Source: Candidatus Moranbacteria bacterium RIFOXYA12_FULL_35_19 (GTDB lineage: Bacteria > Patescibacteriota > Minisyncoccia > Moranbacterales > UBA2206). Taken from it: a stretch of 42,039 bases of DNA. The notes beneath the pieces were generated by a model. It did not search any database, was not told where the DNA came from, and saw only the letters and a program-made list of their open reading frames with translations. This document shows positions 1,631 through 9,678 of this stretch, one piece after another (position 1 is the first letter of the stretch; every line of letters starts with the position of its first letter). The DNA is taken from assembly GCA_001784805.1 (NCBI GenBank), contig MFSE01000015.1, positions 1 through 42,039 on the forward strand, read 5' to 3'. The position numbers and the translations under genes were made by a program.

Positions 1631-1957
1631 ATGTTGAAGGTAGAAGAAGAAGTAAAACCAAGAATTAGGATTAAGATCAAGGCGTATGATCATAAGATTA
1701 TTGATCAATCAGCTAAGCTTATTGTGGAAACCGCCCAAAGATCAGGCGCCAGTATTTCTGGACCGGTTCCTTTGCCGACTGAAATAAGGAAATATACTGT
1801 TAACAAATCGACCTTTGTGCATAAAGATGCGCGTGATCAATATGAAATGAGAACGCACAAAAGATTGATTGACATAATGAATCCGACTCCCAAGACGATT
1901 GATAGTCTCACTAATCTTGATTTGCCAGCGGGAGTGGATGTGGAAATTAAAATGTAG
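1631..1957 (+). CDS. rpsJ: 30S ribosomal protein S10 (uS10)
   Basis: S10 is a 30S head protein and also the NusE factor of antitermination. The 108 residues match the family length. [18 protein letters not shown] at the N-terminus and the loop ISGPVPLPT with the following [19 protein letters not shown] are diagnostic. It is the first ribosomal-protein gene after tuf. The spacer before it contains short GCG-rich inverted repeats but no clear terminator. Its product ends just before the first TACGAA-type palindrome. No Shine-Dalgarno is seen before the ATG. Confidence 0.97.
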
Positions 1958-1960
1958 TTT

Positions 1961-2066
1961 TTACGAAATACGAAAATAATACGAAATACGAAAGTACGAA
2001 AATTAAAATTAAATACGAAAATATATCTAAAACTATTTCGTATTTCGCTAATTTCGTAGTTCGTAA
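1961..2066. repeat. TACGAA-family palindromic spacer, copy 1 (rpsJ-rplC)
   Basis: The left arm is built from repeated (T)ACGAAATACGAAA units and the right arm from the complementary TTTCGTATTTCG and TTCGTAGTTCGTAA. Together they could form one imperfect hairpin of about 106 nt. Copies at 8311, 10800 and 14035 are close relatives and share the core AAATACGAAAATATA. Confidence 0.85.
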
Positions 2067-2081
2067 ATATCTAGTTAAAGT

Positions 2082-2186
2082 CCAGCCAAGTCAAATATCG
2101 AGTTTTGGTCGGATACTCAACTAGCCAAGAAAGAAATTTCTATAAACTCGAAAGGGTTTTGGCTGGTAATTGACCAGCTTTTATTT
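2082..2186 (+). promoter_or_regulatory. Putative structured leader/attenuator before rplC
   Basis: CCAGCCAA at 2082-2089 is complementary to TTGGCTGG at 2159-2166, and inside it CGAGTTT 2099-2105 pairs with AAACTCG 2144-2150. The 3' strand of the outer stem overlaps a second hairpin, GCTGGT 2162-2167 with ACCAGC 2173-2178, followed by TTTTATTTATTTT. The long stem and the terminator-like hairpin are therefore mutually exclusive, which is the layout of a transcription attenuator 14 nt before rplC. No known riboswitch or ribosomal-protein leader family was recognised. Confidence 0.5.
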
Positions 2187-2199
2187 ATTTTAGATAACT

Positions 2200-2760
2200 A
2201 TGGCAAAATTTATACTCGGAAAAAAAATAGGAATGACGACGATTTATAATGAAGACGGCGCACAGAATGTGACGCTGGTTGAATGTGCTTCAAAAGTGAG
2301 TCTGATTAAAAACAAAGAAAAGGATGGTTATTCTGCGGTTCAGTTGGAAATTCAAAAAACTAAGAATAAAAAATTTAAAAAAGAATTCCGAGTGGAAGAA
2401 AATAAATTGGAAAAAGAGGCCCAATTAGATGTTTCTGTTTTTGAAATCGGGGATAAGGTAAAAGTAAGCGGGATTGCTAAAGCGAAAGGTTTCCAAGGGG
2501 TAGTCAAAAGACATGGTTTCAAAGGATCTCCTAAAACTCATGGACACAAACATGATCTTCGCGCTCCTGGTTCAATCGGTTCTGGTTTTCCGGAACATGT
2601 TACTAAGGGCAAAAGAATGGCGGGAAGAATGGGAGGAAAAAGATCAACCAGTAAGAATATCAAGATTGTTTTTATAGATAAAGAAAAAAATATTTTAGGA
2701 CTTAAAGGTTCTGTCCCTGGAGTAGCTGGGCGAGTCGTGGAGATAGCGAGTATTAAATAA
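2200..2760 (+). CDS. rplC: 50S ribosomal protein L3 (uL3)
   Basis: L3 is an early-assembly 23S rRNA-binding protein near the peptidyl-transferase centre. The start FILGKKIGMTTIYNEDG and the central loop (GFQGVVKRHGF, then GSIGSGFPEHVTKGKRMAGRMGG) are diagnostic. At 186 residues it is somewhat shorter than the usual 205-210. It follows a possible attenuator, so expression from here on may be controlled separately from tuf-rpsJ. The next spacer is another TACGAA palindrome. Confidence 0.97.
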   Translation: MAKFILGKKIGMTTIYNEDGAQNVTLVECASKVSLIKNKEKDGYSAVQLEIQKTKNKKFKKEFRVEENKLEKEAQLDVSVFEIGDKVKVSGIAKAKGFQGVVKRHGFKGSPKTHGHKHDLRAPGSIGSGFPEHVTKGKRMAGRMGGKRSTSKNIKIVFIDKEKNILGLKGSVPGVAGRVVEIASIK

Positions 2761-9285: not shown

Positions 9286-9678
9286 ATGGATACTGTTTCA
9301 CAAATGCTAACTAAAATAAGAAACGCTCAAATGGCTGGGCAAAAAGAAGTGGCGATAAGACCGTCTAAGCTTAAATTTGCTTTGGCAGAAATTCTCAAAA
9401 AAGAAGGTTTTGTGGAAAATGTGGCTAAAGAAAAAGAAGGGATGATAAAAATAGTTTTGAAATATCATCAGTTTTCTCCAACAAAAAAAATTCCAGCAAT
9501 CAAAGGAATAAAGAAAATTTCCAAATCAGGACAAAGAATTTATATTAAAAATAAAGATATTAGAGATGTTAGAAATAAATATGGAACAGCTATTTTGTCC
9601 ACTTCCAAGGGCGTGATGACAGGAGAGGAATCAAGAAAAATTGGATTGGGAGGGGAATATATTTGTGAAGTCTGGTAA
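9286..9678 (+). CDS. rpsH: 30S ribosomal protein S8 (uS8)
   Basis: S8 binds the central domain of 16S rRNA and is the known repressor of the spc operon in other bacteria. VSQMLTKIRNAQMAGQKEV at the start and GTAILSTSKGVMTGEESRK then GGEYICEVW at the end are diagnostic. The 130 residues are standard. Whether S8 regulates this operon cannot be told: the spacer between rplX and rplE, where S8 acts in E. coli, is filled by a repeat. Confidence 0.97.
   Translation: MDTVSQMLTKIRNAQMAGQKEVAIRPSKLKFALAEILKKEGFVENVAKEKEGMIKIVLKYHQFSPTKKIPAIKGIKKISKSGQRIYIKNKDIRDVRNKYGTAILSTSKGVMTGEESRKIGLGGEYICEVW

What the first reader, a model, noticed from the sequence alone, without database searches (positions are those of the whole stretch)
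2082..2186. Attenuator-like structured leader before rplC
A long stem closing with CCAGCCAA/TTGGCTGG shares its 3' strand with a terminator-like hairpin (GCTGGT/ACCAGC plus T-rich tail). Only one can form at a time. An internal asymmetric region could bind a protein such as L3 or L4, or a small molecule. It would separate tuf-rpsJ from the rest.
Basis: partly seen in the sequence, partly recalled or inferred. Interest (0 to 1): 0.65.

Follow-up and report, generated by a model that had tools for sequence, protein, structure and literature searches.

The report
Ribosomal protein S8 attenuator before rplC
In front of a long ribosomal-protein operon in a group of tiny, mostly uncultured bacteria (Moranbacteria) there is a conserved RNA switch that copies the spot on ribosomal RNA where protein S8 binds and that probably lets excess S8 stop transcription of the operon, a predicted form of ribosome self-regulation not previously described in the sources I could search.

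Summary
The sensing domain starts at 2071, upstream of the quoted stem: P1 (CTAGTT/AACTAG, 2071-2076/2119-2124), an asymmetric internal loop AAGTC/GATACT (2078-2082/2112-2117) and a variable hairpin P2. A P3 antiterminator and a terminator hairpin with a T tract follow, just before rplC. I find this element upstream of rplC in 124 of 125 checkable genomes of the order (Ca. Moranbacteria) and in three genomes outside it. P1, P2 and P3 show compensatory changes; the loop is almost frozen. Rfam has no match.

The frozen loop is letter for letter the core of the ribosomal protein S8 site in E. coli 16S helix 21 (595-599/639-644), including invariant A642 and the G597-C643 pair, and it varies where natural S8 sites vary (641 U/A, 595). 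rpsH (S8) lies in the same gene run at 9286-9678. Best reading: an S8-binding r-leader; bound S8 locks P1, blocks the antiterminator and causes termination before rplC. L3, L4 or a small molecule are less likely. S8 binding and termination are predictions, untested here.

The parts
2071..2076 (+). P1 helix, 5' strand (CTAGTT)
   Evidence: covaries with 2119-2124 over 103 distinct leaders: CTAGTT/AACTAG, CTCGTT/AACGAG, CTGGTT/AACTGG, CTAATT/GATTAG
2078..2082 (+). S8-like core, 5' strand AAGTC (= E. coli 16S 595-599)
   Evidence: all 114 leaders scored keep GTC; 106 have A at 595, 113 have A at 596; equals E. coli 16S h21
2083..2111 (+). P2 hairpin, variable length and sequence (6 to ~110 nt in relatives)
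   Evidence: base pairs next to the core change on both sides in many leaders
2112..2117 (+). S8-like core, 3' strand GATACT (= E. coli 16S 639-644, includes A642 = window A2115)
   Evidence: GA[T/A]AC in 114 of 114 leaders scored; 641 is T in 108 and A in 6
2119..2124 (+). P1 helix, 3' strand (AACTAG); last four bases also belong to P3
2121..2130 (+). P3 antiterminator, 5' strand (CTAGCCAAGA)
   Evidence: 10-bp complement to 2157-2166; P3 competing with the terminator is seen in 68 of 82 leaders against 12.8 expected
2157..2166 (+). P3 antiterminator, 3' strand (TTTTGGCTGG), overlaps terminator 5' arm
2161..2191 (+). intrinsic-terminator-like hairpin GGCTGGT-AATTG-ACCAGCT plus T-rich tail
2082..2089 (+).
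2200..2760 (+). rplC (L3), first gene under the leader
   Evidence: NCBIfam TIGR03625
9286..9678 (+). rpsH (S8), the proposed ligand, in the same gene run; carries the STS motif and the tyrosine that contact A642 and G597 in solved complexes
   Evidence: NCBIfam PRK00136; alignment to solved S8
1631..1957 (+). rpsJ (S10), last gene before the leader
   Evidence: NCBIfam PRK00596

Best explanation
The element is an autogenous ribosomal leader for protein S8 (uS8) that works by transcription attenuation. P1-core-P2 mimics helix 21 of 16S rRNA. When S8 is scarce (all on 16S rRNA), the 3' strand of P1 is free to pair with TGGCTGG as P3, which uses up the terminator's 5' arm, and RNA polymerase reads on into rplC and the following genes (rplD-W-B, rpsS, rplV, rpsC, rplP, rpsQ, rplN, rplX, rplE, rpsH, rplF, rplR, rpsE, rplO, secY, adk). 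When free S8 accumulates it binds and locks P1-core, P3 is weakened, the GGCTGGT/ACCAGCT terminator forms and transcription stops before rplC. Shown: conserved sequence, covarying helices, constant position before rplC, terminator, P3/terminator exclusivity. Inferred: S8 binding, direction of the switch, termination in the cell.
For: Leader found in 124 of 125 checkable order genomes, with the family set and 39 divergent genomes located by rplC and not by the motif. P1/P2: 90.6% of cells paired, 192 double-change cells against 77 in shuffles and at most 68 in slid controls. The core is the only frozen part. AAGTC..GATACT occurs once in the E. coli rrnB rRNA operon, exactly at 16S h21 (0.07 expected); E. 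coli's own S8 site on rplE mRNA has GATTACT..AAGTC. Known S8 determinants are A595-(A596-U644), (G597-C643)-U641 and invariant A642 (PMC4176348); the leaders keep 597, 598, 640, 642, 643 and vary at 641 (U/A) and 595; family 16S rRNAs have A641 and U595. Pair 599-639 changes as a pair: C-G to U-A (G061, G043) and A-U (G545). Terminator with competing P3 in 68 of 82 leaders against 12.8 expected. Forcing P1-core raises terminator probability by more than 0.1 in 23 of 70 leaders and lowers it by that much in none; for this genome 0.24 to 1.00. rpsH is in the operon with its RNA-contact residues intact.
Against: No binding or transcript data. The leader core is not identical to the family's own h21 (UUAGUC/GAAACG): 595, 641 and 644 differ. 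A covariance model of the leader does not score rRNA h21 above noise, because the outer helices differ, so the similarity rests on the short core. Part of the core invariance is imposed by my search pattern, although only 3 of 125 genomes fell outside it. About a quarter of leaders show no clear P3 by a simple complement search, and equilibrium folding already favours the terminator in many.
Confidence: 0.8

Rival explanations
1. Attenuator bound by another protein of the operon (L3 or L4, or L2/S10) whose target happens to look like the S8 core.
For: rplC is always the next gene; L4 regulates the S10 operon of E. coli from a leader (PMC2704228), and an archaeal L4 leader precedes rplC (PMC7247131).
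Against: The frozen bases coincide with the S8 site of 16S rRNA, the only exact match in the E. coli rRNA operon, and vary as S8 sites do. Nothing linking the loop to an L3 or L4 site was found, but those sites were not compared in detail.
Confidence: 0.08
2. A small-molecule riboswitch with a terminator platform.
For: Aptamer plus terminator architecture; very conserved loop.
Against: Found only before a ribosomal protein operon, never before a metabolic gene; the loop is a single asymmetric internal loop with variable P2, matching a known protein site; no Rfam match.
Confidence: 0.03
3. S8 binds, but the main effect is on translation or mRNA stability (as in E. coli), the terminator being a constitutive partial one that lowers rplC onward relative to tuf-rpsJ.
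For: E. coli S8 acts on translation and mRNA decay (PMC10931766); equilibrium folding favours the terminator in many leaders even when free.
Against: P3 competes with the terminator far more often than chance and shares a strand with P1, which a constitutive terminator would not need; the sensing domain lies upstream of the terminator, not at the start codon.
Confidence: 0.1
4. Reverse polarity: S8 binding favours read-through.
For: The direction is inferred from folding only.
Against: Locking P1-core did not lower terminator probability by more than 0.1 in any of 70 leaders; feedback logic predicts repression.
Confidence: 0.04

Closest known systems
E. coli spc operon S8 operator (rplE start region)
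   Same: same protein-recognition core (AAGUC with GAU(U)ACU), autogenous control of the gene cluster that holds rpsH, mimicry of 16S helix 21
   Different: the E. coli site overlaps rplE inside the operon, is circularly permuted (GATTACT first, AAGTC last) and represses translation and stability; here the site precedes rplC, has the 16S order of strands and sits on a terminator
16S rRNA helix 21, primary S8 site
   Same: core 595-599/639-644 identical to E. coli; 641 U or A; A642 and G597-C643 invariant
   Different: outer helix and apical hairpin unrelated; differs from the clade's own h21 at 595, 641, 644
B. subtilis L10(L12)4 rplJL leader
   Same: r-protein leader that regulates by transcription attenuation (PMC4538822, title and abstract seen)
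   Different: other protein, other RNA fold, other operon, other phylum
L4 leader of the S10 operon (E. coli) and Archaeoglobi L4 leader before rplC
   Same: controls the S10-type cluster; the archaeal case also precedes rplC
   Different: L4 is the ligand; the E. coli leader precedes rpsJ; structures were not compared here

Membership tests
autogenous ribosomal leader (r-leader) | structured RNA consistently upstream of r-protein genes | tested here: met
   upstream of rplC in 124 of 125 checkable genomes
autogenous ribosomal leader (r-leader) | helices supported by covariation | tested here: met
   10 of 14 pairs with changes on both sides, score 0.366 against 0.185 shuffled
autogenous ribosomal leader (r-leader) | protein encoded in the regulated operon binds the leader | not testable with these tools
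   rpsH is in the gene run; binding needs an assay
S8 recognition site (16S h21 / spc mRNA) | asymmetric loop with G597-C643, U598-A640 and invariant A642 | tested here: met
   114 of 114 scored leaders (partly imposed by the search pattern), reference PMC4176348
S8 recognition site (16S h21 / spc mRNA) | triple A595-(A596-U644) or isosteric | tested here: met
   sequence requirement only: 596-644 A-U in 113 of 114; 595 is A in 106
S8 recognition site (16S h21 / spc mRNA) | bound by S8 with high affinity | not testable with these tools
   needs a binding assay
E. coli-type spc operator | site overlaps rplE start, circularly permuted | tested here: not met
   leader lies before rplC; no exact permuted core in the window
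transcription attenuator | intrinsic terminator before the first regulated gene | tested here: met
   terminator-like hairpin in 106 of 114 leaders, 82 of them strong
transcription attenuator | antiterminator excluding the terminator | tested here: met
   68 of 82 leaders against 12.8 expected; 69 against 16.4 with another stem search
transcription attenuator | regulated drop in transcript level | not testable with these tools
   no transcriptome at hand
any Rfam 15 family | score above gathering threshold | tested here: not met

The most novel reading that the evidence does not exclude
An S8-sensing terminator switch, set before rplC and so governing a merged S10-spc operon of about 20 genes in one step, in the Patescibacteria: an S8 leader outside the E. 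coli type and one that acts on transcription instead of translation.
Probability: 0.65. Interest if true: 0.7.

Novelty: new variant of a known kind. Interest (0 to 1): 0.62.

Why it matters
[quoted passage not shown] subtilis or other species outside the E. coli type is unknown and that phylogenetic study has not advanced (PMC10931766). This gives a concrete, testable S8 leader in a deep bacterial lineage, reuses the same 11-base recognition core in a different arrangement (convergence on rRNA mimicry), and offers a first handle on how ultrasmall, reduced-genome bacteria balance ribosome parts.

Tried and rejected
Rfam at gathering and permissive thresholds: only AT-rich miRNA-like noise on the 2761-2880 repeat and a weak preQ1 score inside rplC. 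Copies elsewhere in the own genome: none. Covariance models against rRNA: no hit above noise, so the S8 link rests on the core, not on a whole-model match. Phylum search with R1: the one distant hit, G333, is in what looks like coding sequence and lacks the core; the class hit G768 had no L3, S10 or other tested r-protein beside it and was set aside. A second, interleaved terminator layout seen by eye in some leaders (for example L024, L038) was not above shuffles (11 against 6.5) and is not claimed. The first strict core scan of other orders had only 13 of 39 sensitivity and was relaxed to 36 of 39; of its 4 hits in 40 (1.3 expected) I accept L241 and L239 by eye. The own 16S gene is cut off at a contig end before h21, so relatives were used.

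Full report
OBSERVATION. The 2050-2230 stretch folds better than 200 of 200 shuffles, and the terminator scan marks 2161-2179 with its T-rich tail. Genes around it: tuf 363-1556, rpsJ 1631-1957, leader, rplC 2200-2760, then rplD, rplW, rplB and on to rplX, rplE, rpsH (9286-9678) and rplF, all on the + strand.

CONSERVATION. Reading upstream of rplC in the family showed the same block: CTAGTTAAAGTC, a variable hairpin, GATACTCAACTAG, then GCCA..TGGCTGG and a terminator. Model R1 built from it hits 83 of 131 genomes of the order. To avoid relying on the motif, I listed rplC in the order and read the upstream DNA of the genomes without a model hit. In total 124 of 125 genomes with readable DNA before rplC have the leader: 117 read directly, including G025 with a 2-base insert and two with a U-A pair in place of C-G, and seven placed by coordinates only. 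G058 keeps the terminator but not the sensing part. Outside the order I found it in G683 and in G525 and G545; in 380 genomes sampled from the phylum the only match outside the order was G333, a false hit. Record titles name the hosts as Candidatus Moranbacteria/Moraniibacteriota and unclassified Parcubacteria.

STRUCTURE. On a trimmed alignment of 103 distinct leaders (P2 loops cut out, so the alignment is by construction), P1-core-P2 has 90.6% standard pairs, 10 of 14 pairs with changes on both sides, 192 double-change cells (77 in shuffles; at most 68 for slid partners) and a covariation score of 0.366 (0.185 shuffled). The exception is the loop between P1 and P2, which hardly varies: AAGUC on one side, GAUACU on the other. 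P3 pairs the 3' strand of P1 plus the next bases with the terminator's 5' arm. With the P3 strand shuffled, 12.8 of 82 leaders would show such competition; 68 do. A second stem search gave 69 against 16.4. P3 changes along with P1: TTAGCCA/TGGCTGA, GAGCTGGAT/ATCTGGCTT, CTAGCGAGAA/TTTTCGCTGG.

LIGAND. S8 recognises helix 21 of 16S rRNA through A595-(A596-U644), (G597-C643)-U641 and invariant A642 (PMC4176348). The E. coli core reads AAGUC/GAUACU, identical to the leader; the pattern occurs once in the E. coli rrnB operon, at h21. E. coli's S8 operator on rplE mRNA carries the same two strands in the opposite order. In the leaders 641 is U or A, 595 varies, 596-644 is A-U, and 597, 598, 640, 642, 643 do not change in the 114 scored leaders. 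Some of this constancy follows from the search pattern, but only three genomes fell outside it, two of which keep the 599-639 pair as U-A; G545 has A-U. The clade's 16S rRNA has UUAGUC/GAAACG, so the leader is closer to the general S8 consensus than to its own rRNA; this is the main soft point. The S8 protein of the window keeps the STS loop and the tyrosine named in the solved complexes.

MECHANISM. Forcing P1-core to form, as bound S8 would, raises the computed terminator probability by more than 0.1 in 23 of 70 leaders and lowers it by that much in none; in this genome it goes from 0.24 to 1.00. Before the terminator is complete, locking P1-core costs a median 6.5 kcal/mol, so without a ligand the RNA is expected to leave P1. 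This fits repression by free S8. It remains a prediction; in many leaders equilibrium folding favours the terminator anyway, and co-transcriptional folding would decide.

PLACE AMONG KNOWN SYSTEMS. Autogenous r-leaders with transcription attenuation exist (for example L10 in B. subtilis, PMC4538822), and S8 autoregulation exists in E. coli (PMC10931766). The list of 20 newer r-leaders has none for S8 and none in this lineage (PMC7247131). Literature searches found no S8 terminator leader, within the open papers held. I therefore call it a new variant of a known kind.

Noticed in passing
window 1958-2068 and 2761-2880: AT-rich palindromic repeats of TACGAAT/ATTCGTA type fill intergenic gaps here and in many related genomes (between rpsJ and the leader, between rplC and rplD); they look like a dispersed hairpin repeat family.
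   Followed up: no
L025, L111, L126, L075, L207 (between leader terminator and rplC): A second element, CCCGCACCAATTCCGAA..GGAATCGCCTGCGGCTTA..TTGGTGCGGGATGCTCA followed by a hairpin that takes in the rplC start codon in some; its core is found in 31 of 124 order genomes, several copies in some, no Rfam match. Probably a small mobile element; not in this window.
   Followed up: partly
L011, L012, L014 (same genus as the window): P2 is expanded to about 110 nt with a conserved long hairpin (CCTGCC..GGCAGG) in three genus members while the core stays intact.
   Followed up: no
G000:C22:6191-6872 (L042), L048-L052: 16S rRNA genes of this clade vary from about 1.4 to 2.0 kb, with insertions; the window's own 16S is split over contigs.
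   Followed up: no
L169 (G058): One order member keeps the terminator before rplC but has lost the S8-like sensing domain, a natural test of what the leader is needed for.
   Followed up: no
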